DNA from: Linnemannia elongata
Taxonomy: Eukaryota; Mortierellomycota; Mortierellomycetes; Mortierellales; Mortierellaceae
NCBI GenBank assembly: GCA_036320915.1
Contig: JAXBDG010000025.1
Coordinates: forward strand, 1 to 64,000
DNA length: 64,000 bases
Direction: 5' to 3'
The notes under the pieces were generated by a model. The model made no database searches and was not told the DNA's origin. It worked only from the letters and a program-made list of their open reading frames with translations. How positions within the stretch are numbered: the stretch's first letter is position 1; each line of letters begins with the position of its first letter. Below are positions 12,129 to 43,929 of this stretch, one piece after another. A program made the position numbers and the translations under genes.

Positions 12129-12215
12129 TCGCGCAGTGTAGTCTCGCTTCCATCCCCTCCCCTCGTGGGTTAGAATCCAATTCCTTCGCGCAGCGAAGAC
12201 CTCACGCAGTGAGGG
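12129..12215 (+). other. Element tip: tRNA-like B-box and two GCA-loop hairpins
   Basis: Just inside the tip, GGTTAGAATCC (12,168-12,178) resembles a pol III B-box. The TSD plus the first element bases (CGCGCAGTGTAG) resemble an A-box at normal tRNA spacing. Next come two small hairpins with GCA loops: CTTCGC-GCA-GCGAAG and CCTCAC-GCA-GTGAGG. The hairpin centres GCGCAGCG (12,188-12,195) and ACGCAGTG (12,204-12,211) echo the TSD GCGCAGTG. The B-box and hairpins recur at the right tip; the A-box does not. Confidence 0.45.
12131..12138. repeat. Target-site duplication, left copy (8 bp)
   Basis: GCGCAGTG directly abuts the outer tip of the left inverted arm (which begins TAGTCTCG). It is found again in direct orientation at 39,686-39,693 immediately after the right arm tip (CGAGACTA). 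No base separates either copy from the arm. Confidence 0.85.
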
Positions 12216-12620
12216 TCTGGGTCAAAATTTTGAGTTATTGGCGGAGCGGGTCGTAAAACCAAAAAGGAAGGTTGTTAAGGGTTTCTCCCCCCAATAGCAA
12301 GGCAGTTAAGGGTCTTTTACTCCCCAAAAGCAAGGCTGCTCGTTCTCACACTCGCACTGTTCATCTCTCTTCATCATCTGATTGCCCTCATCAACGCTTG
12401 TCATCTCTGTAGTTCATCCCCCTTTCTCTCTGCTTCCCTCAGCCTAAGTAAATAAACCTTGCTTCTCTCTCCTTTCATATCCCCACTAGCCATATTTACA
12501 GCTCTCTCTATCCCTACCAAACACCGCTTCAAAGCCAGCGCCTTCCGACTGTTCTCTCTCTCTGCCGTCGCCTTTTGCTATTGTCACTGCCCCTTTCAGT
12601 TCTCTCGCCCCATTGTCAGT

Positions 12621-14414
12621 ATGGCTATCGGGAGAAAGGCTATCGTGAGGAAGGCCACTCAAGCAGTGCGTAGACGCAAGAAAAAAGGAATGACAGCTCG
12701 ATTAGGCTTTGCAACAATCCAGTCGCACCAGAGCATCGAGTCGAACCCGTTCAAACAAGTGTGTGTGTATCCAGCGAACGCCTCAGAGTTGTGTCAAGAA
12801 TACTTTGGATTTGAGCCCAAGAAGCAACAAGAGGCCGTCGTCAAGCATATAGGTCGGGGAGAGGATTGCATTCTTATTGCAGGCTGCGGCTGGGGGAAGA
12901 CGTTGGCTTATTTCCTTCCTTTGGTGTTATGGAAAAGCCGTGTCATTGTCGTGATCTCGCCCTTGATTGCACTTATGGAGGAACAACACCGAAAACTTCA
13001 CTCAGTAGACATCAAGAGTATCTGCATTCATAGTCGTGTGGACCTGCCGAGTACCTTGGAGAGCGCGCTGTCGGCCGGAGAGTATCAAGCTGTATTTATG
13101 TCCCCGGAGACCATCTTTGGGAACGACCGTTTTGTGTCCCTTTGGGAGAATCCAAGATGGCGAACGCGAGTACAGGCAGTAGTTATTGACGAGGCGCACT
13201 GCATAAGTACCTGGGGCTCGGACTTCAGGACGGACTATGCTTTGATAGGAGAGCTGCGTTGTAGAGTCCCGCCCGGTGTGGCATTTATCGCAGTCTCGGC
13301 AACGCTACATGGTCAGATTCTGGATGATGTTATTACGAGTCTTCATTTCAGCAAGGATGTCCCAGTCGTTAGAGGGAATACCGATCGCCCAAATATCAGA
13401 TATGAGGTCAGACAATTCAAGGACAACAACACTTGCATGGAGAGCTTAGACTTTCTTCTGGATTTCAAAAAGTCAGTCGTCTACTTCGACTCCACCGCAA
13501 CTCTGGTCAGAGTTTACAAGCGACTTATTGAAAAAGCCAGGACCAGCAATAAAAACCCGCGTTGGATCGGCTATTATTATGCAGGGCTCACATTCGAAAC
13601 CAAGGAACTCTACATGTCGAGATTCAGGAAGGGCCAGATCCGGGTACTGTTGTCTACGGAGGCCGCAGGCATGGGATGTGACATTGACGACATCATTCGA
13701 GTGGTTCAAGTCAAGTGCCCGACTAATATTACCACGCTCGCTCAACGTCTTGGACGTGCAGCTCGATCTTCAGCACTTCGAGGCGTTGGTATTTTATGCG
13801 TGTTGCGTGGTACCGCTAAACAAGCCAGCATTGATCACAACCTCAGGGATTACATCAACACCGACGACTGTCGCAGAAAGATATTCAACCGAGTCTTTGA
13901 CAACAAACATAAAGAGGTCGACAACTGCTGTGATGTTTGTGATTCCAGGCTCAACAAAACTCACGCAGGCTCTGCCGATTCCAATAATGCCGGAACAACA
14001 GCTCTCCAAAAGCTTCCGTCAAACTCAGCCCCGAAGCGCTCACGTTCCCGTTCTCAGGCACAAAAGTTAGAGGCAAAAAAATTGATTGAAGGCTGGAGGC
14101 GCAAGGAGTTGAGAGGAGTTGCAGGAGAGTCAGAGAGCTATGTTCTTGAGACAATTATGGATGATAGTAATGTCAACAAACTTTCCGCCAAGATTGGTCG
14201 CATCTCCACCTGCGACAGTATCGACAACATGATAGACTGGTCGGAGTGGATTGTTGGCTCCAAGAAGCGACTGGTTGACATGCTCATTGCCTTAAACGAC
14301 AAATTCAACAATCCCCCACCCAAGGACATTGACAGTCCTCCGCCCAAGGATATCGACAATCCTCCGTTCAAGGATATCGACAATCAAAAAAGAATTTCTT
14401 ACAATACTCTGTAA
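12621..14414 (+). CDS. RecQ-type ATP-dependent DNA helicase, left arm copy
   Basis: A single-exon 597-aa protein. I chose the ATG at 12,621 (MAIGRKAIVRKATQ); the open frame extends upstream but only with non-ATG starts. Superfamily 2 motifs in order are the Walker A GCGWGKT (about residues 87-93), SPLIALMEEQ, DEAH (190-193, motif II), SAT (about 224-226), and RLGRAARSS (about 376, motif VI). A RecQ-type zinc region follows, with CRRKIF (about 416) and CCDVC (about 436). The C-terminus has three tandem PPxKDID repeats. RecQ helicases unwind DNA 3' to 5'. It lies wholly inside the terminal repeat and reads inward. The leader has an imperfect repeat around GTTAAGGGT (12,271-12,330). It is identical in translation to the right-arm copy. 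Telomere-linked RecQ genes of other fungi are a known parallel, but no telomere is seen here. Confidence 0.9.
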   Translation: MAIGRKAIVRKATQAVRRRKKKGMTARLGFATIQSHQSIESNPFKQVCVYPANASELCQEYFGFEPKKQQEAVVKHIGRGEDCILIAGCGWGKTLAYFLPLVLWKSRVIVVISPLIALMEEQHRKLHSVDIKSICIHSRVDLPSTLESALSAGEYQAVFMSPETIFGNDRFVSLWENPRWRTRVQAVVIDEAHCISTWGSDFRTDYALIGELRCRVPPGVAFIAVSATLHGQILDDVITSLHFSKDVPVVRGNTDRPNIRYEVRQFKDNNTCMESLDFLLDFKKSVVYFDSTATLVRVYKRLIEKARTSNKNPRWIGYYYAGLTFETKELYMSRFRKGQIRVLLSTEAAGMGCDIDDIIRVVQVKCPTNITTLAQRLGRAARSSALRGVGILCVLRGTAKQASIDHNLRDYINTDDCRRKIFNRVFDNKHKEVDNCCDVCDSRLNKTHAGSADSNNAGTTALQKLPSNSAPKRSRSRSQAQKLEAKKLIEGWRRKELRGVAGESESYVLETIMDDSNVNKLSAKIGRISTCDSIDNMIDWSEWIVGSKKRLVDMLIALNDKFNNPPPKDIDSPPPKDIDNPPFKDIDNQKRISYNTL

Positions 14415-15411
14415 ATTAAATGCTTACAAGGGTGTATGCATGAAAGTGTACTATGAGTAAAGATTCGATGAAAGGGGGTCTTTTACATTAGTGTAAGACG
14501 CACTCAACGAGTGAATAAACACACATAGGTAAGCATTTCATAAAACGAAGGTCGAACAACCCAGTAAGGCTCTGGTTTTTTTGGAATGTTTACAATGGTG
14601 TATCAATTAGCCCCAAATCCATTTTTTACATACTTGTAGGAACATACGGCATCGCCTTTTCTTACCCCATTGTAAACAAAACTCGATTCTGCTTCCTTTA
14701 CAACTGAGTAAGGATTACAGCAGAAAGGAGGCGGTTTTTATTTGCCGACAATTGGTCTAATCCTGGTTTGACCAGCGCTGCTGGATGCCTTAAGTCATTT
14801 GACTAGGCGACGCCCTTATCTGTGAATTGTCCATTTTTTTTGTTTTTGCCTCATTGATTTGACAGAAGGCAACAAAAGGTGTTTGACGCCTTGAGTGTCC
14901 ATTTTGCTGGCGAATTTTTTTTTGTCTTCAGGATGCCGGCCATCTTGACCTGACTTTTACATCCTTGTTACACTCATTTTTACACCCGTTCACACTTGAA
15001 CCTGGCCAGAGTCGAAACACAAATTAGCCTCATCTTTCAGGCCATTACTGAACATGAACCGTCATTCGCTTTGTCTTCTTTTCAGATCTCGTCTCTTCAA
15101 TCTCTCTTTATATTCAAACACAAGGAAACAAGGCTAAATCAAGCTCCACCAAGCTCAGGATCCTACACAGTCCTTGTTTGCTCGTTTGTTTCTTTGTCAA
15201 ATATGTCATACAGGACGAATAAAATAAGCAAAATATAGTTTATTCTTCGAGGTATCTTATGCCTTGCCGTCCGTGTAATTCTGCACTCAAAGAGGAAGTG
15301 ATTACAGGGAGAGGTGCCAAGGACCTGATTGTGCATCTAAAGGTAGAAGAGAATAAGAATTGGTGAGAGATGAAAGGTAGAAGGAGAGGCTAAAGGAGGG
15401 CAGAGGGAAGG
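14415..15411. other. Non-coding part of left arm
   Basis: AT-rich, with scattered CTTACA/TGTAAG words (for example near 14,423, 14,487 and 14,960) and no convincing ORF. The same sequence lies in the right arm at about 36,413-37,409. Confidence 0.5.
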
Positions 15412-15616
15412 TGAGGAGGAGTAGAGGGAGCAGCTAGAGGGGAGTAGAGGGGAGCATCTAGAGGGGAGTAGAGGGAAGCAGCAAGAGGGGGGTAGAGGGG
15501 AGCAGCTAGAGGGGAATAGAGGGGAGCAGCAAGAGGGGGGTAGAGGGGAGCAGCTAGAGGGGAATAGAGGGGAGCAGCTAGAGGGGAGTAGAGGGAAGCA
15601 GCTAGAGGGGGTAGAG
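15412..15616. repeat. Purine-rich minisatellite in left arm
   Basis: Roughly ten tandem imperfect copies of a unit close to GAGGGGAGCAGCTAGAGGGG, with TAGAGGGGAG spacers. The long minus-strand ORF here is a product of the repeat. It is mirrored in the right arm near 36,205-36,412. Confidence 0.85.
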
Positions 15617-15947
15617 GGAAAGGGGGAAGGGTGTTAAGAAAAAAGAAAAGAGCGAAGGAGAAAGGGAGACAAGGGATAACGTGCGTGGAGGGAATGGGGG
15701 ACGGATGGAGGGATAAAGAGGAAGAGGAGAATTGAGTGTCGTGAGGCGGTATAATAATACGAAAGAGAAAAGGAAAATGGAACAGAAGGGAGGAAAAGTC
15801 CAATTCGGACTGTAGCTCTTTTTAAAACGTTGTAAGAATTCTCAACAGCTGAGCTGTGTACAATGAGTCGTTTTTCTAATGACAGTCGTCCATTGCTCCC
15901 TCTCTCTCCTTCCTCTCCGCTCCCTGTATCTCTCATTTCGTAAACTT

Positions 15948-15965
15948 GCACCCGTGCACGGGTGC
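15948..15965. repeat. Perfect 18-bp palindrome, left arm
   Basis: GCACCCGTGCACGGGTGC is its own reverse complement. It is conserved exactly in the right arm at 35,858-35,875, so it could be a protein-binding site of the element. Confidence 0.75.
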
Positions 15966-16265
15966 TTCGAAAAGATAGAAAACAGGAAGCAAGCGATACT
16001 AATCACCTGCATGCTCTTTTCTTACCCACACGATTATACATAAGAAAAACAGTTAAGCAAAAACAACAACGATGAGGTAGCAGGAATGAGTGATTAAGTT
16101 AAGGAACAACCACCTCCACCATCAATCCAACAGAAAAACAAAAGATGGTGAGGGGCAGAACGAGAGGAAGCCAAGGAGGAACGATACAAGCTTTCAAGTA
16201 GACAACTTCCTCCTACTCGTGTTATAAAAAAAGAGAAAATTGGGCAAAAACATGTGCCTACGTCG

Positions 16266-16297
16266 CTTTCTTTTTTTTTTTTTTTTTTTTTTTTTTT
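16266..16297. repeat. Poly-T tract in left arm
   Basis: A run of about 30 T, mirrored as poly-A near 35,522-35,548. Its length differs between arms, as expected for slippage or sequencing error. Confidence 0.8.
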
Positions 16298-16649
16298 GTT
16301 TTCTTCTTTTACAAAGTGGTCAAAGCATAACGGCGCGAATGGGCCTCCATAACCTTATACTTTTCTTAGGCCTGGATCTTGATAGAAACAACAAGGTGTA
16401 CAACCAAGGACGAATATCCCCAAATAAAAAGCTAGCGTGGGGTGAGAGAGAGGGCGAAAGGCAAGCTCGTGAGAACTCAGAATACGAGCCTTGCAAAGAC
16501 TGACCTGGGATCAAAGGGTGCATGATGTGACGTATGCCTCTCCCCCTGTTGCGGTACGGGGTTTTTTATTCTATTTTACCCCGTCTTTTTATTTAACGAA
16601 GAAGTGCTGCTAGCGACCACATCACCACATGGCAGATGGTCGCTTCTCA

Positions 16650-16760
16650 ACTACCACCTCCGTGATTGTTTATAATAATCATCATCTCCGTGATTATTTA
16701 CCACCTCTGTGATTAACTATCACATCTGTGGTTAAATATCACTCCAGTGGTGTAAAACAA
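16650..16760. repeat. Short tandem repeats (CTCCGTGATTA type), left arm
   Basis: Four to five degenerate copies of a unit of about 20 bp, near ACCTCTGTGATTA. Each can partly pair with the next. Mirrored at about 35,070-35,180. Confidence 0.7.
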
Positions 16761-16879
16761 TAAAACAACTCTTTTTTCTCGTTAACTTAGACTGCATACT
16801 TTTCACCCCTTTCTTTTCCTTGACTCTGGTCCAGCAATTGCTTGGTCGATATAGGCGATACCAACCTCGCAATCACGTG

Positions 16880-16931
16880 CATAACACGCTCGGCCTCGAC
16901 CCTCCATGAAAAAGGAGATAGAAGTGTGTGC

Positions 16932-17017
<86 letters not shown>

Positions 17018-17840
17018 AAGAGACAGAGAGTACAAGAATGACTGAGGGACTCGAAAATGAAAAGAGTGTGAGAAGTATGGGTAGAATTAACGAGAAGAAA
17101 GAGTGCGTTTTCTTTATTTTGCATCACAGAGCAGATAATAAGCAGTATCGGCTCGTGTGGCTTGATCGGTTGAGCGTTTCTTCGTTAAAAAAACGGATAA
17201 ATAAAAATAAACCCGTACCACAACAGCTGCACATGTTTGCACGGGCCTTTCATTGATTTTCCTTCCTCTTTTTTTGACCACATCCTCTTCCCTTTATTCC
17301 CTCGCTTGCCTCTTTTTTTTTCTTGGATTCTGGCGAAGCGAATGCTTGACCGATATGAATAATACCCAATTAGTATAGCCATCTATTTACCCACAATCAC
17401 TTACGTAACACGCTCGTTCGCGGCTCCGTGAAAAAGGAGATGGAGGTGTGTGCGTGTGTGCGTGTGTGTGTGAGAGAGAGGGCGAGGCAGAGAGGACAAG
17501 CATGACTGAGGGACTCGAAAGAGAAAGGGTGCACATGTTTGCACGGGCCTTTCATTGATTTTCCTTCCTCTTTCTTGACCACATCCTCTTCCCTTTATTC
17601 CCTTGCTTGCCACTTTTTTTATTTCTTTGATACTGGCGAAGCGACTGCCCGGCCGATATGAGTAATACCCAATTGATACTGCCATCTATTTACTCATAGT
17701 CACTTACGTGACATGCTCGAGCGCGGCTCTCCGTGAAAAAGGAGATGGAAGTGTGTGCGCGTGTATGTGTGTGAGAAGGCGAGACAGAGGCGAGACAAAG
17801 GGCGAGACAAAGAGGAGGAATGTGACATAGACTTGGAACA
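16880..17840. repeat. Subterminal cassette repeats with GT/GA microsatellites
   Basis: Three diverged copies of a cassette start near 16,885, 17,410 and 17,725. Each has GTGAAAAAGGAGAT or a close variant, then a (GT)n and (GA)n run. Copies 1 and 2 continue with GACTGAGGGACTCGAAA and TTTGCACGGGCCTTTCATTG. The left arm's homology to the right arm ends inside the last cassette, so the arm boundary lies within a repeat. Confidence 0.75.
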
Positions 17841-18218
17841 CGATATCGTGTGCATATTTACATGTATCTCCCATTGATTCTACCTTCTGTTTTAAAAAAT
17901 AGCCGTGGCCATTTTTCTCATTCTATTCCATTTTCTATCGGACATATTCTTTATTCTGACTCTGCATCCTTCACATTCTTTGAGCCCTATCAGAATTCAA
18001 ACCTACATGCGGCGCAAGCATATGGCGTTTAAGGCAGCTGCAATTTTACAACACCGTCGATTCATCTAGTAGATTGACACCGACAAAAGACACTTTTGCT
18101 CATGCACATACCTCCCCTATTGTTTTCATAATTGATAGTGATGTAGTACAAATAAAAAACACCTGCAGTTTATTCATGCAAACTTGCTCATTTCACTGAT
18201 GTTTTGGTCTCTTCACAT
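17841..18218. other. Core spacer next to left arm
   Basis: AT-rich, with nothing recognised. Confidence 0.4.
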
Positions 18219-18803
18219 TCAACAAGTCTTGCCTTGCAATGTAACTAGTGGGATCCATAAAACAAGGTCTACTGTTCTTCGAGCGGGTTCCTTGAGGGAT
18301 ACGACGTTTTCTATTGTTTGTTCTTTCCGATCGGCGCCTCTTGACGAATCTTGGAGAGGAATTGCGAACCTCATTGGTATTCGATCCACGCATGTCGTAA
18401 AGGTGAAGAAGGGATGGTCGAGTTCTTGACCCGCAAGCTGAAAAGGCTTTTCGAACGATAGGCTTGGTGATTGAATTGGAGGCAAAGTAACATCGGTGTC
18501 GTCTCCGGACAACTCCTCGGAAGTATCGTCCATGTATCCAGGAGACAGGGGGGATGTTTCATCGCATCGACGTAGGCTACCAATATCAACATCCCCCAGC
18601 GACAGACCAAAGTGATCAGAGGGGTGTGCTTTTGGCTTGGTGTCGACCAGTCCTTCGTCCAAAAACGCGTCTAATTCAACGACCTCCGCAGGCAAGAGCG
18701 AGAGGATAGTCATATCAGGGGCTGGCATTACACAAGACGAGCGATGAAGCTGAAGGACTGATCGACCTGGGCTGGAGGCACCACAATAGCAAACAAACTC
18801 CAT
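18219..18803 (-). CDS. Small acidic zinc-finger-like protein of the element
   Basis: 194 aa from an ATG at 18,803. The N-terminus MEFVCYCGASSPGRSVLQLH continues to a Cys, giving a C-x-C then H-x3-C arrangement that could bind zinc. The rest is Ser/Asp/Pro-rich and probably disordered. No family is recognised. It has the same plan (N-terminal Cys/His cluster, low-complexity body) as the gene at 32.8-33.9 kb at the other end of the core, and both are on the minus strand. It may be a DNA-binding accessory protein of the element; that is inference. It could continue through unrecognised introns. Confidence 0.5.
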   Translation of the reverse strand: MEFVCYCGASSPGRSVLQLHRSSCVMPAPDMTILSLLPAEVVELDAFLDEGLVDTKPKAHPSDHFGLSLGDVDIGSLRRCDETSPLSPGYMDDTSEELSGDDTDVTLPPIQSPSLSFEKPFQLAGQELDHPFFTFTTCVDRIPMRFAIPLQDSSRGADRKEQTIENVVSLKEPARRTVDLVLWIPLVTLQGKTC

Positions 18804-19963
18804 TGATTTGCTAGCCTTGCGACAAATATCTCAGTACGTGGAGATTGCGCGGTGGGGTGGTTGTTTTTGAGAGACAGTGAGTAGGGGGTGTGATAGTCGT
18901 GAAAATGAAGCATTTTTTTTTCAATGATGAGAGGAGAATGAGGTCGCGCTGGCCACTTCATAGCGCAGTGGTAGTATGTGCAGGTGGGGAGGATGTTGGC
19001 CATATTTTTTGTTTAAAAAGTGAAGGACCAGAAGAAAAAAAAGTTGATGGTATCTACATGGAATGAACATTGGTCTCTTTATACAGTCCTGAAAAGCATA
19101 GACATTCAGGGCAGCGTTATTCTTCGTCTTGTCAAGTGTTAAGTATATCCTTAAACAACACTTTCTGGGTTTTTACTGTTCCTATTGCTTAAAGTGCTTG
19201 CGTTAGCGCAAGTGTAATGGTCGATGTACTTAGGTAATCAAACCCTCATATTCAATCCAATTCTGGTAAGTAAGAGGTACATCCTGTTGGTTCCTGGGTA
19301 TTGGCCTTTTTGTTCCTATACCGGTACAATGCAAGCTATTTAAAAAAATGCAACTGCATGGTAAGTCAACGCTCGTGGAAAAATCGATTGCTAATTACTG
19401 ATCAAGATTTTACTAAATGCCCAAGCGCACAATCCTTCCGAAGATTTTTTTGGATAAACTAAAGCCAGATTGACTTTTTCAGGCCTAGAGTTACTTAGGA
19501 CAAGGGTCATATTCGGAGTCACCCTTGCCGTAAAAAGGAGCTTCGCCTAGTCAATGAAGGATTATGTTTGTTTGCTTATTTTAAAAAAATGAATCAAGTG
19601 CGAGTTGCTATTATACCTACCTCAAATGAATACAACCTTAGCACGACAATGGTGTTTCTCACATTGCAATCTGTGAAGAATAATAGAGGTGTAAGCCCGC
19701 TTGCCTCTAAAACGCCAAATTTTGGATATCATTGGGTAGACTATAAAAACAATGATTCATAAGTAAAATTCCTCATTTGTAAATTCTTACAACCATAACA
19801 ACACCACCACTATACCAACACCACTGCTAATCCTACCATTAGTGCTACCACTCCCACCATTCATGTAATGATTCTCTGCAGTTTTTGGTACTTCACGTTT
19901 GAAACTAATTGTACATGGCAATCGTCTGATATCCCTACCCTTGCATCTTTCATTACCAAAAGC
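18804..19963. other. Core spacer upstream of the MULE gene
   Basis: AT-rich with only small ORFs. The MULE promoter presumably lies at its right end, near the ACCACCACTATACC-type repeats at 19,800-19,860. Confidence 0.4.
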
Positions 19964-22900
19964 ATGCCCTCGATTATCAACACCGCTTCGACCCCAATCG
20001 ACGTTGACGCCTTGCCGCGGTTGCAGTCTGATGCGGCTTGGATTTATGGAAAGATCTGGCGAAACCGTGTTCCTTGTGCCCAGCTCCTAGAAGTGAACGA
20101 TTTCCCTCAGTTTTCCTCGACCCGTAACACGGGTGAGCTACCGCATTGCACTACTTTGCCGGCAACAGTCCTTAACCAAGAGAGCCTTGCAGCTTTGAGG
20201 ACCATTCCCAATCTCCAGTCCTATACCGCGACCTATAACAAGTTCAAGGACAACAACAACAACCTCGGCCTCTGGATTAACATTGGATCGACCTTTGTCC
20301 CCTTCCGCGTCTCCGAAGAAATAGACTTTGTCTTCTTGAAGGAGGTTGTCCAGTCTGGCTGCCTTATTGAGCATCTTCACCGAGCGCGCCGTTGGATGAG
20401 GAACTCTGTTGCTGCGTTGAACCCATCATTTTTTGAGTGGTACCAGCAACAGATGAAGATTATTCGCATTGATGACGCGCTGTTTTCTCTTGGTCCGGAG
20501 TCGGTTTCCCTCGCTTCCCTTCTCCCTCTCGCCGGCCAAGAGTGGATGACCTCAACCATTCTGGATGCAATCATGTGCGATTTTGAGGTCCGATACGGAT
20601 TGTACAACAGCAACACCAACCTGTTTATTTCGCCTTGTAGGCTGTCTGATTGGATGCGGGAGCACCCTAACTTAGGCAACAAAACCTTTCACAACTGGAA
20701 TGTCGATGGTCTTAGAAACGGAAGCTATGACGCCGTCTATTCCATAGTCTACCTAGGCCGCCACTGGGGAGTGATCAAGTTGGATATGGTTTCGTGCGCA
20801 GTTTATGTTGGAGACGGAATGCGTTATTCGGACAACGGATACTCCACCGCCGTCCATGTCCTCAAGGCCTGGGTTAGTTTGGGGATATCCAGCCTTAAGT
20901 CAAAAAATGGACTAGAACGAATATTCAACGCTTACACCAACCTCGGCAGTCGGACGGCAGCTCGTGTGGCGTAATTGCCGCACATATGATTGAGAACGAT
21001 ATCACAGGTCAGGAGTCTATAACCATCTGGACTGAAAAAGATAACGTTAAACACCGTGCCAAGTATTTGGCTCGATTGATGGGCTTTGACAAGGTACACA
21101 AATGAGAATTTAGCCTGTGCCTTTTGTAGTTGTAAACGAAATCAAAATGCTTGTGTACTCTTGTTTAATAGACCTTGAATTTTTTGTAGCCTAGGATTTC
21201 TCTTGATACAAAGGATGGCCAACTCAAAATGGAAAAGACGGCTATGGAAGCCGCGTTTGCCGAGACTCCCATTTGTAGCAAGAACAAAGCCGAACCCTCA
21301 TCTGCTTCCTTTGAGGCCTCTCCGGGCACAGAGCAACAACCAGTTCCTCAGTTCAAGGTAATGAAAAAAAAAAATCGCGACAAAAAAGATAATAATCAAG
21401 AAACCAAGAAAAAAAACACCTGGGCTCACTCTTTTTTATTTTTATTTCTGAAAAATGTAACGTGCTTCTCAACGTAGAATCTCTCCCCGACCTCTAGCAG
21501 CTCAAAGAACAGTGATAAGTCGTTAGACTCTTTCATCGCCCCCCCTAAAACACCGCTGACTACGCTTCCCAGCCCTTTGCAGCAAAAGGTACCTTAATGT
21601 CGCTCAAAACAATAACCCAGAAGAGTATGAAGTGACGTGGCCCATTTTGCTAACTTTTTTTTCATGGTTTTTTTAGGCTAAGGAACTTGGCGACAAATTC
21701 GAGAGCATGTTCTCTCATAACAACCTCGAAAAGGAGGTAACATAAAATCAAGACGGTGCTTTCATTACATTTTGGCATCCTGCCCTATTGCATTTGTGTA
21801 TTCAATGCCTCTACCACTTTCTCCTCTATCATTCTTTTTTATTAGGGTGAACATTGGTCGGACAATGCTTTTGCTGACTCGGATGAACAGGAAACGTTCA
21901 AGGACGATGACGAAGACGATGACGAGGCCGAGGGCCAGGACCAGGACGAGCTGTATGACGTTGAGACGGAAGAAGAGTTATATTCGTCGTTCAATAACAA
22001 CGCCTCATCAACCACTCTTTCCAGTAATCAAAACAAAAATCACTTCGTCTTACAATCACGCAGCAGCTGTCAGTGCCGTTCTTTACAACACATCCTCAAC
22101 ACCTGTATTTTCCGCTCGGGAGCGTATGAGGGAGGATGAGAGCATGGATGAGATCGACGAGGACGAGTGCAGATATGAAGAGGATGGGTCGGTTCATGTT
22201 CCGGTCAAGGTTGGCGATGTTGCTAGTGAACTGCTGGTGGGCTGGGTGCCCACCTTTCACTATTGTCTTGGATCAAGGTCGGCTGCGGACGTATTTTTGA
22301 GGTCTTGGGCACTCAAAAAGGGGCACAAGCTTATAATTCGCACCTCGACTGTCAATGCCGGTAAGCAATATTGGTTTGTACATGTTATATCAAGTGTGAG
22401 ATAGAGTTGAGCAAGAAATCGAAATCGCGAACCTTATCGTCTTTTTCATTTTTCTACCTCCTTATCCTCTTTCCTCACCACTAAATAGTCAAGTACGTTT
22501 GCAGCTTCTTTGGGTTCTATACATCCAAGAAAGTTGCTGACGAGGATCGACAGCACAACAAGCGTGAGAGTCCACGTTGTGGTTGCCCATTCGCGATCAG
22601 CATATCTTCCCCTCTGTCCATCGCTCCTGATTACCACATCACCTCCTTCAACCTCGATCACTGTGAGCACCAGTTCGATTTTAATCTTGGCCGAACCAAC
22701 CCCTTGACGGCCCCTATGATCGCTTCTATTGGGAAATGTGCCCAGATTCGACTGTCCTACAAGCAAACACTGGACATTTTGCGTATCGAATTTCGGGATG
22801 CAAAGTTCTGCAAATATCAGGTATTGTTGTGGACAGTTACGGTTTGAGTGACAACTTTACATTTCGACTCAAATCAATTTTCTCATACACATTTTTTCTC

Positions 22901-30244: not shown

Positions 30245-30600
30245 ACATTGTATGAAGTGTAGAGAGAGAATGATGAGTGAGAGGAAAGAGAGAGAGTGAT
30301 GAGAGGGAGGTAGAGAGAGGGAGGAGAGGGAGGGATGAGAGGGAGGGATGAGAGGGAGGAAGAGAGGGAGGAAGAGAAAGAGATGAAAGAGCGGAAAGAG
30401 AGGGTGAGGAAACGAAACACAAAGGAGGGAGGGATTTCAAGAAATGCAACGAAAAATAAGTAAAAAAAAGGAGAGGGTAGAAAAAAAGAAGAGAGAGAGA
30501 ATTGTCCGAAAACAAAAAAAAAAAGAGATAGAATTGTCCGAAAAGAGGGAGAATTGTCCGAAAAGAGGGAAAACAAAAAAGAGAAACGTAAAACCGTTTC
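30245..30600. repeat. GA-rich tract with a 20-bp minisatellite
   Basis: GAGAGGGAGG-type repeats (30,250-30,420) are followed by about four copies of GAATTGTCCGAAAAGAGGGA (30,500-30,575). The long minus-strand hydrophobic ORF over it is an artefact of the TC-rich complement. Confidence 0.7.
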
Positions 30601-31711
30601 AAAGTTCATAAGTCCTGTTAAATCACGTGAAGTGGGCAAACTCAAAGATTCCTTTAAGAGTTTAGAGAATCCTCTTTGCTACTTTTTTCATTCTTTTTTA
30701 CGAGCATTTTTTCCTTGGTTTATGTAACACAAAGGAAAATGCACTAATCGCCGGTTTATTCCATTCATTCCCTCCAGTCAAAACTATCCCGCGCCGAACA
30801 ACTTCAGCGTGGCTCGGTTCATGCTTTGCTCGCGTCCATCCCCAGGCACACATCGGAAGGGGTTTTCCGTGTCTCTTCTATGGCTGACACAGGAAAAAGC
30901 ACGCGCCCAGAGTATGTGATCTTACGAACAAACCGCACCTACTTCTGTACCTGCGCATTGCAACAGAATAAGGGCAATTGTTTGTAGGCATTTCTTTTGT
31001 TTGATGATGGAGGATGCACGATTCCTTTTTCACCCTTGCATGATTCTGCCACGCTGGTACAAAGTGGGGAAACAATTTGATCCGAACCTCAAGCAACAAC
31101 TCTCCGACAAACCTTTCCTCCGCGCACAGACGGTAACAGTCAACGAGGGTGACAGCAAAGACCCGGTCGGCACGGATCTATCCATCGATACCTTTATGGA
31201 CGACTCTAACTCTATCCTTCGACCTCCACCTGTTGCTCGTCATTCAACACAACCCAAAGCCCCAGGGAACAGGATCCTTATCTCCGCCAAAAGTCTCGTC
31301 AAAAACACCAGTAAGCTGGACGGGATCGCGGAGACGATGCAAGCCCTTGAAGAGGGTGCTCGCCTTCTAGTTCAACAGTCACAAGTGCCTGGAACAGTGG
31401 GCGCAGATTTGAGCAAGGGATTGGATCTAGACAGTATAGTCGATGGAACCGAAAATGACCTGAAAGGAGAAGGTCGTCCACGTGGAGTCAGCCTTCCGCA
31501 CGGTTGGAAGTCCAAGGCCATCAAGAAAGCAAGCAAGACTATTACCACTGGTGCAGCAATCCAAGCGACCAAAGCGACCAAGGCGACCAATGCGATCAAG
31601 GCAACCAAAGCAATCAAGGCGACCAAAGCGACCAAGGCGGCCAAATCTACAGCAGCCAATGGAAATGGTGTTCGCGTTTGCTGTCAAACGAACAAGAACG
31701 GGAGACGATGA

Positions 31712-32762
31712 TGTCAGCGACGGCGGTGATGTTGAGGAGGTAGACTTGCCAAAGAAGATGCAGAGAGGGCCAAAGTCAAAGTCCGGCGAGGGGCGAGGTT
31801 CAAGAAGGCAGAGAAGCGGGAGTATGGATGCCCCTGGCCAGTAATGGTGCATGTGAAGGGAGAGAAAGGGTTGAGGAGGAGGCGAAAAATGGTAAAATAT
31901 GAAACAAGAGAATGGAGCCTGAAAAATACTCAATTAAAGACATATGATATTATGTGATTTTTTTTTTATTCAAATACAAAGTCTTTGACGTGGTCTAAAT
32001 TGAGGTTGTAAGATGGTAAAAGAAGGGAGCAAATCATGGATGTGTATCGTGCTGCGGGTGTTAACAGATGGGTAAAGAATGTGCCTACGGTCGTGTTTTG
32101 GCAGCGGGAGAAGGAAAGAAATGAAGAAGGGAAGGGAATTTAGGCGAAAAGTAACTGGTTTGTGGACGACTCTTTCTTTGCAGGCCCTTTACTCTCGTAG
32201 CTGCGCGCCCACCCGATAAAGTATGGTTAGGGAAACTCTTCTTTCGACGGTTTCATATGTGCTGCTTTGTGTGATTATGAATAAAATAAGACACCGTTGC
32301 CGATCGTAGTTAAGGGATGGGTTGCACATTGCTTGCTACGTTTGTACTGTGAGGGACACTATCTTTTCTTTGTGGTATTCTCCACCACCCCCCACCCCCC
32401 CTCCCCGGCCCAAGTAAAAGTAGGCATGTGTCCCTTTTGACTATCTTAGACTCGTAGCACGCACTTGTAGACGGGTAAGGCCTGTTGATCAACTGTGTTT
32501 ATGTGTCAGTAAGTGTAATTTTGACCGAGTGGTTGGCGTAGGTCGGGAGTGAGTACTAACGGGTCAACGGCACAGAGAAAGAGAACCATCTGCAATGTGT
32601 AAAGGCGTTGGTGCCAAGGGCTTTGAAAGGGGGGTTTACATTGTATACTATGGTCAAACGTAATCAGAAAAATAACGAGCATGATGGTGGGGTTCAGGAC
32701 GACTCTTGTTGTTTGCATATAGCCTTCTCCTCCTTTACACTCTCTCCTTTGCGCACCTCCTT
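31712..32762. other. Core spacer between MULE gene and zinc-finger gene
   Basis: No gene recognised. There is a C-rich run at about 32,384-32,407. Confidence 0.4.
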
Positions 32763-33872
32763 TCACTCCTCCGCCTCCTCCTTCACATCCTCATCCTTAT
32801 GCACTTCTCCCATCTCCTCAGCTGCATCCTCCATGTCCTGTGAGTCCTTCTTCGCTATCTTCATTTTATTCTCTTCTCCAGCCATCCCACGCGAGAATTC
32901 CTCATTGTGGTGTGCAGTAACTTGAGCCTGCGCCATGTTTCTTTCCAAGCTATTTTCATACTCTGGGGACTCGGACTCTGAGATAACTTGATCGTGGTCA
33001 TCAAGATGCGGGATGTAGCGCCTCAGGTCGACACCAAGCCTAAAGTGTCCATCGACAGAACTTCCTGGCATGGTGAATCTTTCCTGTGAATCTAAGAAAA
33101 AAAAAACGTAAGAGTTATGTTAATTTGAGAAAACGCACAGCCACATGCATAAGGAGATCAAGTGTTTACCTGTCTGCCACCCAGGCTTCTCAAATGTGAA
33201 CCTCTCGATCCTGTTAAGCAGTCCCTCAGTCTTGTTCATCAGTTTCACAATATTTTCAATGATCTTGTTTTGCTTGGCGGAAAGGTCCTTGTTATTATCC
33301 ATCAGTTGTTTAAACGATGTCGAAAGGTCGGCCTTGAGACTATCGATGCTGTCCTCGATCTGATATAACCGCTCAGACCCCATCTGACTGTACCCAAGAA
33401 GGGCCATAACGGTGTTCTGGAACCGAACTATGCCTTGCACTTGCTCCTCGTTGGAGCCGTCCATGTCGATGTCGGGCTGTAGAAATGGACTCATGGGAGC
33501 TCGATGGCCTGAGCTTGCACTTGAAGAGGCACTTGTCGCTGGGTAGGGAGCCTGACGCGCCCGCTGCTGTCGTCCTAGTTGTTGGCGGAGTAAACGGAAG
33601 CGAGCGGTGTCATCGGAGCGTACAAAACGGCAGACAGCAATATGCTTCAACACATTCTGACGAACATTGGTGGTTACTTGGCATTGGGTCGACGGACATG
33701 GATAATGATTATCGTGTTCCTCGCTGCGTTCAACCATGATATCGGGGAGTCCAGGTCGTTGAACAAGAACCGCAATCTTCTCATGGTATCTCTTGTTATG
33801 CTCCTCGGTTTGTTCCTCCGGAGGGATCCGGCAAAGTCTTCGATCAAAGTGTGGGCAGAGGACGGTAGGCAT
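32763..33872 (-). CDS. Element-encoded protein with Cys/His cluster and coiled coil
   Basis: Two exons on the minus strand, 33872-33170 and 33091-32763, join in frame to 343 aa (WQT-D-SQERFTMPG across the splice). The N-terminus MPTVLCPHFDRRLCRI with later EEHNKRYH, and YPCPSTQCQ with LKHIAVC, gives paired Cys/His groups resembling degenerate zinc fingers. A Ser/Ala/Pro linker follows. Residues of about 140-230 are rich in L/I/K/D at heptad spacing (YQIEDSIDSLKADLSTSFKQ and on), suggesting a coiled coil. The tail is acidic. It resembles in layout the gene at 18.2-18.8 kb. It faces away from the right arm and lies within 250 bp of it. Function unknown; DNA binding or dimerisation for the element is a guess. 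Confidence 0.6.
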
Positions 33873-34800
33873 CGAGGGAGTTATGAGTGGAAATGTGTCT
33901 AGAATACTTTTCTGCTGTTGTGATATGGAAGTGTTGGAATTGGTTTGCTTATGAACAGTATGCAAATAAATAAAAAGAAAAAGAGATATAGATGTCGTTA
34001 TTGTACGAGATTTATTTTGTGGTTCGTTGGGTGTGCATTGCAAGGACAAACGCAATTCTGCTTCTTCTGATGTGGTCCTGTTGGCTTCGGCGCGGACGGG
34101 CGTATCATGTAAGTGACTATGAGTAAATAGATGGCAGTATCAATTGGGTATTACTCATATCGGCCGGGCAGTCGCTTCGCCAGTATCAAAGAAATAAAAA
34201 AAGTGGCAAGCAAGGGAATAAAGGGAAGAGGATGTGGTCAAGAAAGAGGAAGGAAAATCAATGAAAGGCCCGTGCAAACATGTGCACCCTTTCTCTTTCG
34301 AGTCCCTCAGTCATGCTTGTCCTCTCTGCCTCGCCCTCTCTCTCACACACACACGCACACACGCACACACCTCCATCTCCTTTTTCACGGAGCCGCGAAC
34401 GAGCGTGTTACGTAAGTGATTGTGGGTAAATAGATGGCTATACTAATTGGGTATTATTCATATCGGTCAAGCATTCGCTTCGCCAGAATCCAAGAAAAAA
34501 AAAGAGGCAAGCGAGGGAATAAAGGGAAGAGGATGTGGTCAAAAAAAAGAGGAAGGAAAATCAATGAAAGGCCCGTGCAAACATGTGCAGCTGTTGTGGT
34601 ACGGGTTTATTTTTATTTATCCGTTTTTTTTAACGAAGAAACGCTCAACCGATCAAGCCACACGAGCCGATACTGCTTATTATCTGCTCTGTGATGCAAA
34701 ATAAAGAAAACGCACTCTTTCTTCTCGTTAATTCTACCCATACTTCTCACACTCTTTTCATTTTCGAGTCCCTCAGTCATTCTTGTACTCTCTGTCTCTT

Positions 34801-34888
<88 letters not shown>

Positions 34889-35857
34889 GCACACACTTCT
34901 ATCTCCTTTTTCATGGAGGGTCGAGGCCGAGCGTGTTATGCACGTGATTGCGAGGTTGGTATCGCCTATATCGACCAAGCAATTGCTGGACCAGAGTCAA
35001 GGAAAAGAAAGGGGTGAAAAGTATGCAGTCTAAGTTAACGAGAAAAAAAGAGTTGTTTTATTGTTTTACACCACTGGAGTGATATTTAACCACAGATGTG
35101 ATAGTTAATCACAGAGGTGGTAAATAATCACGGAGATGATGATTATTATAAACAATCACGGAGGTGGTAGTTGAGAAGCGACCATCTGCCATGTGGTGAT
35201 GTGGTCGCTAGCAGCACTTCTTCGTTAAATAAAAAGACGGGGTAAAATAGAATAAAAACCCCGTACCGCAACAGGGGGAGAGGCATACGTCACATCATGC
35301 ACCCTTTGATCCCAGGTCAGTCTTTGCAAGGCTCGTATTCTGAGTTCTCACGAGCTTGCCTTTCGCCCTCTCTCTCACCCCACGCTAGCTTTTTATTTGG
35401 GGATATTCGTCCTTGGTTGTACACCTTGTTGTTTCTATCAAGATCCAGGCCTAAGAAAAGTATAAGGTTATGGAGGCCCATTCGCGCCGTTATGCTTTGA
35501 CCACTTTGTAAAAGAAGAAAACAAAAAAAAAAAAAAAAAAAAAAAAAAAGAAAGCGACGTAGGCACATGTTTTTGCCCAATTTTCTCTTTTTTTATAACA
35601 CGAGTAGGAGGAAGTTGTCTACTTGAAAGCTTGTATCGTTCCTCCTTGGCTTCCTCTCGTTCTGCCCCTCACCATCTTTTGTTTTTCTGTTGGATTGATG
35701 GTGGAGGTGGTTGTTCCTTAACTTAATCACTCATTCCTGCTACCTCATCGTTGTTGTTTTTGCTTAACTGTTTTTCTTATGTATAATCGTGTGGGTAAGA
35801 AAAGAGCATGCAGGTGATTAGTATCGCTTGCCTTTCTCTGTTTTCTATCTTTTCGAA

Positions 35858-35875
35858 GCACCCGTGCACGGGTGC
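35858..35875. repeat. Perfect 18-bp palindrome, right arm
   Basis: The exact counterpart of the palindrome at 15,948-15,965. Confidence 0.75.
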
Positions 35876-36204
35876 AAGTTTACGAAATGAGAGATACAGG
35901 GAGCGGAGAGGAAGGAGAGAGAGGGAGCAATGGACGACTGTCATTAGAAAAACGACTCATTGTACACAGCTCAGCTGTTGAGAATTCTTACAACGTTTTA
36001 AAAAGAGCTACAGTCCGAATTGGACTTTTCCTCCCTTCTGTTCCATTTTCCTTTTCTCTTTCGTATTATTATACCGCCTCACGACACTCAATTCTCCTCT
36101 TCCTCTTTATCCCTCCATCCGTCCCCCATTCCCTCCACGCACGTTATCCCTTGTCTCCCTTTCTCCTTCGCTCTTTTCTTTTTTCTTAACACCCTTCCCC
36201 CTTT

Positions 36205-36412
36205 CCCTCTACCCCCCTCTAGCTGCTTCCCTCTACTCCCCTCTAGCTGCTCCCCTCTATTCCCCTCTAGCTGCTCCCCTCTACCCCCCTCTTGCTGCTC
36301 CCCTCTATTCCCCTCTAGCTGCTCCCCTCTACCCCCCTCTTGCTGCTTCCCTCTACTCCCCTCTAGATGCTCCCCTCTACTCCCCTCTAGCTGCTCCCTC
36401 TACTCCTCCTCA
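36205..36412. repeat. Minisatellite in right arm
   Basis: Mirror copy of 15,412-15,616 (CCCCTCTAGCTGCTCCCCTC-type units), with at least one single-base length difference. Confidence 0.8.
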
Positions 36413-37409
36413 CCTTCCCTCTGCCCTCCTTTAGCCTCTCCTTCTACCTTTCATCTCTCACCAATTCTTATTCTCTTCTACCTTTAGATGCACAATCAGG
36501 TCCTTGGCACCTCTCCCTGTAATCACTTCCTCTTTGAGTGCAGAATTACACGGACGGCAAGGCATAAGATACCTCGAAGAATAAACTATATTTTGCTTAT
36601 TTTATTCGTCCTGTATGACATATTTGACAAAGAAACAAACGAGCAAACAAGGACTGTGTAGGATCCTGAGCTTGGTGGAGCTTGATTTAGCCTTGTTTCC
36701 TTGTGTTTGAATATAAAGAGAGATTGAAGAGACGAGATCTGAAAAGAAGACAAAGCGAATGACGGTTCATGTTCAGTAATGGCCTGAAAGATGAGGCTAA
36801 TTTGTGTTTCGACTCTGGCCAGGTTCAAGTGTGAACGGGTGTAAAAATGAGTGTAACAAGGATGTAAAAGTCAGGTCAAGATGGCCGGCATCCTGAAGAC
36901 AAAAAAAAATTCGCCAGCAAAATGGACACTCAAGGCGTCAAACACCTTTTGTTGCCTTCTGTCAAATCAATGAGGCAAAAACAAAAAAAATGGACAATTC
37001 ACAGATAAGGGCGTCGCCTAGTCAAATGACTTAAGGCATCCAGCAGCGCTGGTCAAACCAGGATTAGACCAATTGTCGGCAAATAAAAACCGCCTCCTTT
37101 CTGCTGTAATCCTTACTCAGTTGTAAAGGAAGCAGAATCGAGTTTTGTTTACAATGGGGTAAGAAAAGGCGATGCCGTATGTTCCTACAAGTATGTAAAA
37201 AATGGATTTGGGGCTAATTGATACACCATTGTAAACATTCCAAAAAAACCAGAGCCTTACTGGGTTGTTCGACCTTCGTTTTATGAAATGCTTACCTATG
37301 TGTGTTTATTCACTCGTTGAGTGCGTCTTACACTAATGTAAAAGACCCCCTTTCATCGAATCTTTACTCATAGTACACTTTCATGCATACACCCTTGTAA
37401 GCATTTAAT

Positions 37410-39203
37410 TTACAGAGTATTGTAAGAAATTCTTTTTTGATTGTCGATATCCTTGAACGGAGGATTGTCGATATCCTTGGGCGGAGGACTGTCAATGTCC
37501 TTGGGTGGGGGATTGTTGAATTTGTCGTTTAAGGCAATGAGCATGTCAACCAGTCGCTTCTTGGAGCCAACAATCCACTCCGACCAGTCTATCATGTTGT
37601 CGATACTGTCGCAGGTGGAGATGCGACCAATCTTGGCGGAAAGTTTGTTGACATTACTATCATCCATAATTGTCTCAAGAACATAGCTCTCTGACTCTCC
37701 TGCAACTCCTCTCAACTCCTTGCGCCTCCAGCCTTCAATCAATTTTTTTGCCTCTAACTTTTGTGCCTGAGAACGGGAACGTGAGCGCTTCGGGGCTGAG
37801 TTTGACGGAAGCTTTTGGAGAGCTGTTGTTCCGGCATTATTGGAATCGGCAGAGCCTGCGTGAGTTTTGTTGAGCCTGGAATCACAAACATCACAGCAGT
37901 TGTCGACCTCTTTATGTTTGTTGTCAAAGACTCGGTTGAATATCTTTCTGCGACAGTCGTCGGTGTTGATGTAATCCCTGAGGTTGTGATCAATGCTGGC
38001 TTGTTTAGCGGTACCACGCAACACGCATAAAATACCAACGCCTCGAAGTGCTGAAGATCGAGCTGCACGTCCAAGACGTTGAGCGAGCGTGGTAATATTA
38101 GTCGGGCACTTGACTTGAACCACTCGAATGATGTCGTCAATGTCACATCCCATGCCTGCGGCCTCCGTAGACAACAGTACCCGGATCTGGCCCTTCCTGA
38201 ATCTCGACATGTAGAGTTCCTTGGTTTCGAATGTGAGCCCTGCATAATAATAGCCGATCCAACGCGGGTTTTTATTGCTGGTCCTGGCTTTTTCAATAAG
38301 TCGCTTGTAAACTCTGACCAGAGTTGCGGTGGAGTCGAAGTAGACGACTGACTTTTTGAAATCCAGAAGAAAGTCTAAGCTCTCCATGCAAGTGTTGTTG
38401 TCCTTGAATTGTCTGACCTCATATCTGATATTTGGGCGATCGGTATTCCCTCTAACGACTGGGACATCCTTGCTGAAATGAAGACTCGTAATAACATCAT
38501 CCAGAATCTGACCATGTAGCGTTGCCGAGACTGCGATAAATGCCACACCGGGCGGGACTCTACAACGCAGCTCTCCTATCAAAGCATAGTCCGTCCTGAA
38601 GTCCGAGCCCCAGGTACTTATGCAGTGCGCCTCGTCAATAACTACTGCCTGTACTCGCGTTCGCCATCTTGGATTCTCCCAAAGGGACACAAAACGGTCG
38701 TTCCCAAAGATGGTCTCCGGGGACATAAATACAGCTTGATACTCTCCGGCCGACAGCGCGCTCTCCAAGGTACTCGGCAGGTCCACACGACTATGAATGC
38801 AGATACTCTTGATGTCTACTGAGTGAAGTTTTCGGTGTTGTTCCTCCATAAGTGCAATCAAGGGCGAGATCACGACAATGACACGGCTTTTCCATAACAC
38901 CAAAGGAAGGAAATAAGCCAACGTCTTCCCCCAGCCGCAGCCTGCAATAAGAATGCAATCCTCTCCCCGACCTATATGCTTGACGACGGCCTCTTGTTGC
39001 TTCTTGGGCTCAAATCCAAAGTATTCTTGACACAACTCTGAGGCGTTCGCTGGATACACACACACTTGTTTGAACGGGTTCGACTCGATGCTCTGGTGCG
39101 ACTGGATTGTTGCAAAGCCTAATCGAGCTGTCATTCCTTTTTTCTTGCGTCTACGCACTGCTTGAGTGGCCTTCCTCACGATAGCCTTTCTCCCGATAGC
39201 CAT
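37410..39203 (-). CDS. RecQ-type ATP-dependent DNA helicase, right arm copy
   Basis: A 597-aa protein from an ATG at 39,203, identical in translation to the left-arm helicase. It includes the Walker A GCGWGKT, DEAH box, SAT, RLGRAARSS and the RecQ zinc cysteines. It is intact and reads inward. Full identity over the coding region, with changes only in low-complexity DNA nearby, points to a recent duplication or continuing gene conversion between arms. Either copy could supply helicase activity. Confidence 0.9.
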   Translation of the reverse strand: MAIGRKAIVRKATQAVRRRKKKGMTARLGFATIQSHQSIESNPFKQVCVYPANASELCQEYFGFEPKKQQEAVVKHIGRGEDCILIAGCGWGKTLAYFLPLVLWKSRVIVVISPLIALMEEQHRKLHSVDIKSICIHSRVDLPSTLESALSAGEYQAVFMSPETIFGNDRFVSLWENPRWRTRVQAVVIDEAHCISTWGSDFRTDYALIGELRCRVPPGVAFIAVSATLHGQILDDVITSLHFSKDVPVVRGNTDRPNIRYEVRQFKDNNTCMESLDFLLDFKKSVVYFDSTATLVRVYKRLIEKARTSNKNPRWIGYYYAGLTFETKELYMSRFRKGQIRVLLSTEAAGMGCDIDDIIRVVQVKCPTNITTLAQRLGRAARSSALRGVGILCVLRGTAKQASIDHNLRDYINTDDCRRKIFNRVFDNKHKEVDNCCDVCDSRLNKTHAGSADSNNAGTTALQKLPSNSAPKRSRSRSQAQKLEAKKLIEGWRRKELRGVAGESESYVLETIMDDSNVNKLSAKIGRISTCDSIDNMIDWSEWIVGSKKRLVDMLIALNDKFNNPPPKDIDSPPPKDIDNPPFKDIDNQKRISYNTL

Positions 39204-39685
39204 ACTGACAATGGGGCGAGAGAACTGAAAGGGGCAGTGACAATAGCAAAAGGCGACGGCAGAGAGAGAGAACAGTCGGAAGGCGCTGGCTTTGAAGCGG
39301 TGTTTGGTAGGGATAGAGAGAGCTGTAAATATGGCTAGTGGGGATATGAAAGGAGAGAGAAGCAAGTTTTATTTACTTAGGCTGAGGGAAGCAGAGAGAA
39401 AGGGGGATGAACTACAGAGATGACAAGCGTTGATGAGGGCAATCAGATGATGAAGAGAGATGAACAGTGCGAGTGTGAGAACGAGCAGCCTTGCTTTTGG
39501 GGAGTAAAAGACCCTTAACTGCCTTGCTATTGGGGGGAGAAACCCTTAACAACCTTCCTTTTTGGTTTTACGACCCGCTCCGCCAATAACTCAAAATTTT
39601 GACCCAGACCCTCACTGCGTGAGGTCTTCGCTGCGCGAAGGAATTGGATTCTAACCCACGAGGGGAGGGGATGGAAGCGAGACTA

Positions 39686-39693
39686 GCGCAGTG
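39686..39693. repeat. Target-site duplication, right copy (8 bp)
   Basis: GCGCAGTG flush with the right arm tip. Joining the flanks at one copy gives an empty site in which TTTTGCCAC and GTGGCAAAA form an imperfect hairpin around the insertion point. Confidence 0.85.
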
Positions 39694-43892: not shown

Positions 43893-43929
43893 CCTTATCC
43901 TGCAGGATGAAGAATATGACAGGCGTGGC

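What the first reader, a model, noticed from the sequence alone, without database searches (positions are those of the whole stretch)
12131..39693. A 27.5-kb transposon-like unit with 5.6-kb inverted ends and a flush 8-bp duplication
Seen directly: inverted arms 12,139-17,707 and 34,109-39,685 start and stop exactly at GCGCAGTG, present in direct orientation on both sides. The core encodes MULE transposase parts. Known: MULEs make 8-11 bp duplications and some have long terminal repeats. Inferred: this is a giant MULE-type element whose terminal repeats have engulfed a RecQ helicase gene. I know of no described element with this combination.
Basis: partly seen in the sequence, partly recalled or inferred. 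Interest (0 to 1): 0.92.

Follow-up and report, generated by a model that had tools for sequence, protein, structure and literature searches.

The report
Jumping gene nested inside mirrored jumping gene
A mobile DNA element carrying a RecQ helicase gene was invaded by a second, unrelated mobile element, and one half of the result then appears to have been copied over the other half in mirror image, which would explain the very long inverted ends and shows how such ends may grow.

Summary
In detail: inverted arms 12139-17725 / 34091-39685 and a flush 8-bp repeat GCGCAGTG. The outer 2,247 bp of each arm belong to a separate 6.1-kb DNA transposon (457-bp inverted ends; RecQ helicase gene facing a DUF6589 gene; 8-bp duplication at one of its two full copies). 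The inner 23 kb is a MULE (16.7 kb in four of five complete copies; 9-bp or slightly longer duplications in five of five) that inserted into the RecQ gene and took two insertions. The 8-bp duplication belongs to the RecQ transposon. Both MULE ends here are type 2, whereas the five complete copies have one of each type; the DUF6589 half is missing, replaced by a mirror image of the RecQ half. Best explanation: copying that entered through the MULE inverted repeats and closed in the RecQ-transposon repeats. Similar end-to-end copying is clear in one of four MULE copies tested and in a RecQ/DUF6589 relative. Warning: three other contigs carry the left 25.4 kb without a difference in the parts compared and end at the window's first base; this looks like assembler extension, so the palindrome's interior needs spanning long reads.

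The parts
12131..12138 (+). left copy of 8-bp target site duplication GCGCAGTG (of the RecQ transposon)
12139..14385 (+). left RecQ half of the RecQ/DUF6589 transposon, begins TAGTCTCGC; its first 457 bp are the terminal inverted repeat
   Evidence: 99.8% to C2 copy, 99.6% to C28 copy over 2247 bp
12456..14414 (+). RecQ-like helicase reading frame (652 aa stop to stop), 3' end cut off by the MULE; 723 aa in the C2 and C28 copies
14385..17725 (+). left terminal inverted repeat of the MULE, with a type-2 end (CAAAAAAGAATTTC)
14385..37439 (.). MULE, 23 kb here, inserted in the RecQ gene (about 16.7 kb without its two insertions)
22685..23144 (+). MULE transposase, first part of the split reading frame (uninterrupted in copy A, inside a 542-aa open frame)
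23145..24313 (.). insertion 1 in the MULE transposase, CAGTC...GACTG ends, TA on both sides; repeated elsewhere in the genome
24316..25410 (+). MULE transposase, part with the MULE domain (PF10551)
25411..30670 (.). insertion 2, 5.3 kb; its left part is a high-copy repeat
34091..37439 (-). right terminal inverted repeat of the MULE, type-2 end
37439..39685 (-). right RecQ half of the RecQ/DUF6589 transposon, mirror image of 12139-14385
37410..39368 (-). RecQ-like helicase reading frame, right copy
39686..39693 (+). right copy of 8-bp target site duplication GCGCAGTG

Best explanation
Two nested DNA transposons made symmetrical by inverted-repeat copying. (1) A 6.1-kb RecQ/DUF6589 transposon inserted here and duplicated GCGCAGTG (supported by the flush repeat and by an independent copy with its own duplication). 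(2) A MULE with ~3-kb inverted ends inserted into its RecQ gene (shown by the uninterrupted copies of both), and it also received two insertions. (3) The locus then held two nested pairs of inverted repeats: the MULE's inside, the RecQ transposon's 457-bp ends outside. A break or excision gap was repaired by copying the RecQ side onto the DUF6589 side, entering through one pair and leaving through the other, so that the DUF6589 half and one MULE end were replaced by a mirror image (inferred). The unit has two intact transposon ends but no DUF6589 gene, so if DUF6589 is the transposase it could move only with a protein from another copy, such as C2 or C28 (inferred).
For: Outer arm = half of a stand-alone 6.1-kb element found complete twice (C2, C28; 99.6% to each other), C2 with duplication GGGTGTCC. 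RecQ-like sequence lies tail-to-tail beside DUF6589 at 9 of 10 DUF6589 loci of this genome, the tenth being a 60-position fragment. MULE: 5 of 5 complete copies read have duplications of 9 bp or slightly more and one type-1 plus one type-2 end; the window has type 2 at both. Arms are each other's closest relatives: RecQ halves differ by 1 base in 2,247 but by 3-4 from C2 and 8-9 from C28; the two MULE repeats share 12 variants absent from both repeats of copies A-D. Copying between inverted ends is seen independently: in MULE copy B the 4 sites at which B alone differs are changed in both of its repeats; in the C5 RecQ/DUF6589 element a 332-bp insertion lies at the same site of both inverted ends in mirror image (320 of its bases checked in the second) and is not seen in either end of C29. 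Joining the two flanks over one GCGCAGTG gives a perfect 9-bp stem TTTTGCCAC/GTGGCAAAA, as might be expected if they were once contiguous; this was noticed afterwards and has no control.
Against: Copies C and D of the MULE keep 5 and 4 differences between their two repeats, and copy A, though without differences, has no variant of its own, so only B is a clear case. No intermediate (MULE in RecQ with the DUF6589 half still attached) was seen. Window 1-25448 recurs at other contig ends without differences in the parts compared, so the core path in the window may be an assembler's choice. The C28 copy has no target duplication, and none was found for the relatives C28:2231 kb and C31, whose left ends were not located.
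Confidence: 0.6

Rival explanations
1. The palindrome is an assembly join: the 23-kb MULE was not resolved, and the assembler walked out of the right flank, through the repeat, and out again into the left RecQ half.
For: C18 begins, and C1, C17 and C20 end, at window base 1; C1, C17 and C20 match the window without one difference in the parts compared up to 25448, and all three break at that same base. C1 and C20 hold the two halves of one MULE target duplication, CAAGGTAACG, as if C1-MULE-C20 were really contiguous. C13 carries the left part with 48 single-base indels and only 2 substitutions, a long-read error pattern. The core runs in the same direction in all five contigs although two have a type-1 and three a type-2 proximal end.
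Against: For the window's own contig both outer junctions carry GCGCAGTG, and the right arm is not a verbatim copy of the left. If C1/C20 and C13/C17 are paired, the left-flank RecQ end and the C18 RecQ end are the two left over, and they carry the matching duplication. No DUF6589 locus or 457-bp transposon end lies beside a MULE end in the assembly as an alternative (coordinates).
Confidence: 0.25
2. The palindromic 27.5-kb unit formed elsewhere and inserted here as one piece, moved by a protein acting on its intact ends (the DUF6589 protein is the candidate).
For: Flush 8-bp duplication and intact TAGTCTCGC ends on both sides.
Against: No donor copy was found: apart from the right arm itself, every near-full-length arm hit outside C2 and C28 has the same left neighbourhood, though cut-and-paste would leave no donor.
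Confidence: 0.12
3. The other four contigs are real: chromosome ends exchanged by recombination between MULE copies, so several chromosomes share one end. (Not exclusive of the main explanation.)
For: Exchanged duplications at long-repeat transposons mark real rearrangements in Drosophila (Galileo, PMC2775673, passages).
Against: No differences in the compared parts of 25.4 kb in three contigs plus a shared last base. The telomere repeat TTAGGG x4 was not found anywhere in the assembly, so no contig end could be shown to be a chromosome end.
Confidence: 0.12
4. One giant MULE whose terminal repeats grew to include RecQ.
For: Geometry alone.
Against: MULE copies elsewhere end at the equivalents of 14385/37439 with their own duplications; RecQ belongs to a separate transposon.
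Confidence: 0.02

Closest known systems
AcademH DNA transposons (animals and fungi)
   Same: Helicase-bearing; reported from fungi including Mucoromycota (PMC10799480, passages); a RecQ helicase is reported in Academ (PMC3627910, passage); 9 or 10 bp duplications (PMC10045372, passage), close to the 8-9 bp here.
   Different: Duplication of 8 bp at 2 loci (9 at C29 and at two short inserts with similar ends). Whether DUF6589 is the AcademH transposase could not be tested: the original AcademH paper is not held and no AcademH sequence was at hand.
KolobokH (fungal, RecQ helicase)
   Same: Fungal DNA transposon with a RecQ helicase (PMC9587614, passages).
   Different: Kolobok makes TTAA duplications; here 8-9 bp without TTAA. 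KolobokH has RecQ downstream of the transposase, here it is on the opposite strand (the same passages name one red-algal Kolobok with RecQ on the complementary strand).
Mutator-like elements (MULEs) with long inverted ends
   Same: The inner 23-kb part: MULE domain, ~9-bp duplications in its other copies, ~3-kb inverted ends.
   Different: The outer unit and its 8-bp duplication are not the MULE's.
Galileo / Foldback elements
   Same: Long inverted ends that recombine; chimeric copies and exchanged duplications (PMC2775673, passages).
   Different: Here the copied tract appears to run through two different, nested families and to replace a gene.

Membership tests
MULE (inner element) | MULE transposase domain | tested here: met
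   PF10551 E 2.4e-18 in the window fragment; uninterrupted 542-aa open frame in copy A
MULE (inner element) | 8-11 bp target duplications | tested here: met
   5 of 5 complete copies elsewhere, 9 bp or slightly longer, read by eye; not testable in the window, whose MULE flanks are mirror images; unpaired ends on C4 and C10 were not read
MULE (whole 27.5-kb unit) | unit ends are MULE ends | tested here: not met
   ends at 12139/39685 are RecQ/DUF6589 transposon ends; MULE ends at 14385/37439
AcademH | helicase gene in the element | tested here: met
   RecQ-like helicase
AcademH | 9-10 bp target duplications | tested here: inconclusive
   8 bp in window and C2, 9 bp at C29, none at C28; not found at C28:2231 kb and C31, whose left ends were not located; right end of C5 not reached; two short inserts with similar ends 9 bp
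AcademH | Academ transposase | not testable with these tools
   no Academ model or sequence at hand; DUF6589 (PF20231, E 5.8e-84) is listed as of unknown function
KolobokH | TTAA target duplication | tested here: not met
   GCGCAGTG, GGGTGTCC
DDE transposase (DUF6589 protein) | conserved catalytic acidic residues in an RNase H fold | tested here: inconclusive
   acidic positions D176, D211 (AGD), D292, E293, D360, E366, D375, E401, D440 (numbering of the 595-aa C2 frame) are the same in 5 of 5 relatives aligned; no fold computed, catalytic role not shown

The most novel reading that the evidence does not exclude
RecQ/DUF6589 elements are a DNA-transposon lineage not yet described under that protein family, and the window shows a one-step route to giant inverted ends: copying between nested inverted repeats of two different transposons replaces one half, with its DUF6589 gene, by a mirror image while leaving a flush target duplication that mimics a single huge transposon.
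Probability: 0.35. Interest if true: 0.68.

Novelty: new variant of a known kind. Interest (0 to 1): 0.5.

Why it matters
How transposons come by very long terminal inverted repeats is rarely visible. Here the unmirrored forms (plain RecQ transposon, plain MULE) and the mirrored one lie in one genome, so the copying model can be tested. It also warns that a flush target duplication around a long palindrome need not mean that the whole palindrome jumped. And it ties a protein family without known function (DUF6589) to a RecQ helicase in a transposon with its own ends and target duplications.

Tried and rejected
Giant-MULE reading: rejected, see membership test. Composite transposon with two complete outer elements: rejected, neither arm is a complete element (the DUF6589 half is absent from both). 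Telomere-linked helicase region: TTAGGG x4 was not found in the assembly, so a position next to a telomere could not be shown. Possible giant relative on C10 (842121-860516, similar inverted ends 18.4 kb apart): the 8 bases outside the two ends do not match by eye; left open. Literature (open-licence library only): DUF6589 alone, 0 papers; DUF6589 with transposon, 0; RecQ helicase + target site duplication + terminal inverted repeats + Mortierell, 0. Further listings. Passages were read; no paper was read whole. The likely host group (Mortierella-like fungus, from gene content) is recalled, not tested.

Full report
What is there. The inverted arms and the flush GCGCAGTG are in the sequence as described. 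The window is the start of contig C18 of a 51.1-Mb, 32-contig genome, so copies could be compared inside the genome.

The arm is two things. A search with the outermost kilobase gave 16 matches: 8 over its full length, 2 of 457 bases, and 6 weak ones at 73-83%. At C2:1016386-1022484 and C28:4126-10223 the outer 2,247 bp of the arm are the RecQ half of a complete 6.1-kb element with 457-bp inverted ends; the two copies are 99.6% identical. The other half encodes a DUF6589 protein (PF20231, E 5.8e-84 for the C2 copy). The C2 copy is flanked by GGGTGTCC on both sides; the C28 copy has no duplication. DUF6589 was found at 10 loci here (12 matches, two loci in two pieces each), and 9 of the 10 have a RecQ-like match next to it, all 9 tail to tail; the exception is a 60-position fragment on C6. 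The reverse does not hold: several weaker RecQ-like matches, for example on C32 and C6, have no DUF6589 nearby. DUF6589 rings in 0 of 14 control genomes. RecQ identity rests on solved structures, best 1oyw at E 8e-41 (that it is E. coli RecQ is recalled); the Pfam RecQ zinc domain itself is below its cut-off.

The inner 23 kb is a MULE. Complete copies A (C13:893 kb), B (C8), C and D (C2) and E (C4) end where the window's RecQ sequence begins, at 14385/37439. A-D are about 16.7 kb long, E 20.7 kb (ends). All five have one type-1 end (CAACGCGGAAATGC...) and one type-2 end (CAAAAAAGAATTTC...) and a direct duplication of 9 bp or slightly more (read by eye: CTCTTGATC(A), ATGTTTGTC, ATTCACTCC(CC), AGAGAAGGG, TTGTTTGAG). 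Copies A-D hold window 17005-23145 and 24308-25410 without the intervening 1.2 kb (in which 35 of 123 candidates were scored), and copy A lacks 25411-30670 as well: the window MULE has taken two insertions, the first with TA on both sides, the second with a high-copy repeat at its left part. Both interrupt its transposase, which is uninterrupted in a 542-aa open frame in copy A. Genome-wide 8 type-1 and 15 type-2 ends were found with up to 2 mismatches.

The mirror. In the window both MULE ends are type 2, and both are flanked by the same RecQ half. The halves differ by 1 base in 2,247, against 3-4 from C2 and 8-9 from C28. Left and right MULE repeats share 12 variants that neither repeat of copies A-D has. 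So one side was copied from the other. In normal copies the part matching window 32600-34100 lies near the type-2 end, which suggests that the right arm is the original and the left the copy; this holds only if the core orientation is assembled correctly.

Copying between inverted ends happens elsewhere in this genome too. Over about 2.7 kb of the MULE repeats (columns without gaps, beyond the outermost ~40), the two repeats of B have no difference, and the 4 sites at which B alone differs are changed in both: a clear case. A's repeats also have no difference, but A has no variant of its own, so it is only compatible. C and D keep 5 and 4 differences between their repeats, which argues against constant homogenisation. 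The outermost ~25 bases differ between the two ends in all 4 copies, as expected if unlike flanks stop the tract. In the RecQ/DUF6589 relative on C5 a 332-bp insertion (duplication CTCCTCAGG) lies in both inverted ends in mirror image (320 of 332 bases checked in the second, where the fetched stretch ends) and was not found in either end of C29, while a 371-bp insertion lies in one end only. The window case differs in that flanking homology existed: the RecQ transposon's own 457-bp ends lie outside the MULE, so a tract could run through the MULE end, across 1.8 kb of RecQ gene, and close in those ends. This explains without coincidence why the arms stop at the transposon ends and why the duplication stayed flush.

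The empty site. Joined over one GCGCAGTG, the flanks read TTTTGCCAC-AGTGTCGCGCA-GTGGCAAAA, a perfect 9-bp stem. This fits the view that 12138 and 39694 were once neighbours, but it was noticed afterwards and no control was run. The right flank (39694-41500) matches nothing else in the genome.

Assembly doubt. C1, C17 and C20 match the window without a difference in all parts compared up to base 25448, and all three break at that base; their last 235-242 bases are the window's first (the stretch from about 240 to about 1937-2034 was not compared, and one base near 12 kb was skipped in each). C13 carries the same stretch with 48 single-base indels (29 in runs of one base) and 2 substitutions, all between 7229 and 15898, and goes on 7 kb further. 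Beyond 25448 the four contigs differ from the window mostly by the same variants. C1 and C20 have the two halves of one MULE duplication, CAAGGTAACG. The simplest reading is that three near-identical 23-kb MULEs were not resolved and contigs were extended through the tangle: C1 with C20, C13 with C17 (no shared duplication, so less sure), and C18 with the left flank, the pair with the matching GCGCAGTG. On that reading the outer structure of the window is right, the inner path unproven, and the extra four 'copies' do not exist. Real exchange of chromosome ends is the alternative, and read depth would decide. That assemblers can extend contigs through unresolved repeats is recalled knowledge, not tested.

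Place among known things. RecQ- or helicase-bearing transposons are known in fungi (KolobokH and AcademH; passages). TTAA rules out Kolobok's target; the 8-9 bp here is close to AcademH's 9-10. Kinship with the Academ transposase could not be tested. I therefore file the outer element as a RecQ transposon of uncertain superfamily, most likely AcademH-like, and the whole as a new variant of a known kind: nested transposons symmetrised by inverted-repeat copying.

Noticed in passing
C1:4772171 and C20:82470 (L046, L044): Two contigs carry the two halves of one 10-bp MULE target duplication (CAAGGTAACG): a probable missed join or a real rearrangement.
   Followed up: partly
window 1-25448; ends of C1, C17, C20: C18 begins and three contigs end at exactly the same base; the three match the window without a difference in the compared parts up to base 25448.
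   Followed up: yes
window 598-9427: Four direct repeats about 2.7-3.0 kb apart (64-83% like the first); the reading frame near base 324 looks like an FAD-dependent monooxygenase (by eye, no search): probably a tandem gene array.
   Followed up: no
L067 1192-1523; L068 1431-1801: Short elements of 332 and 371 bp with TAGGCTCG/TAGTCTCG ends and 9-bp duplications: probable non-autonomous relatives of the RecQ/DUF6589 transposon.
   Followed up: partly
C10:842121-860516: Ends about 80% like the RecQ transposon's, inverted, 18.4 kb apart, without matching duplication: a possible second large unit.
   Followed up: partly
window 58670-59842 (-): DDE_3 endonuclease (Tc1/mariner-like, recalled), open frame of 390 aa.
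   Followed up: no
window 50295-54449 (+) and 39868-41832 (+): Sacsin-domain protein with BTB domain (1384-aa open frame), and an F-box-like protein directly right of the unit.
   Followed up: no
window 42865-43662 and 43371-44141 (-): Direct repeats mostly 84 bp apart, overlapping a frame with leucine-rich repeats and a weak F-box-like match.
   Followed up: no
C1:4029197-4036000 and C14:345424-352227: A RecQ/DUF6589 locus lies in a stretch of at least 6.8 kb that is 100% identical between two contigs in the 3.6 kb compared; one end of the shared stretch was reached, the other not.
   Followed up: no
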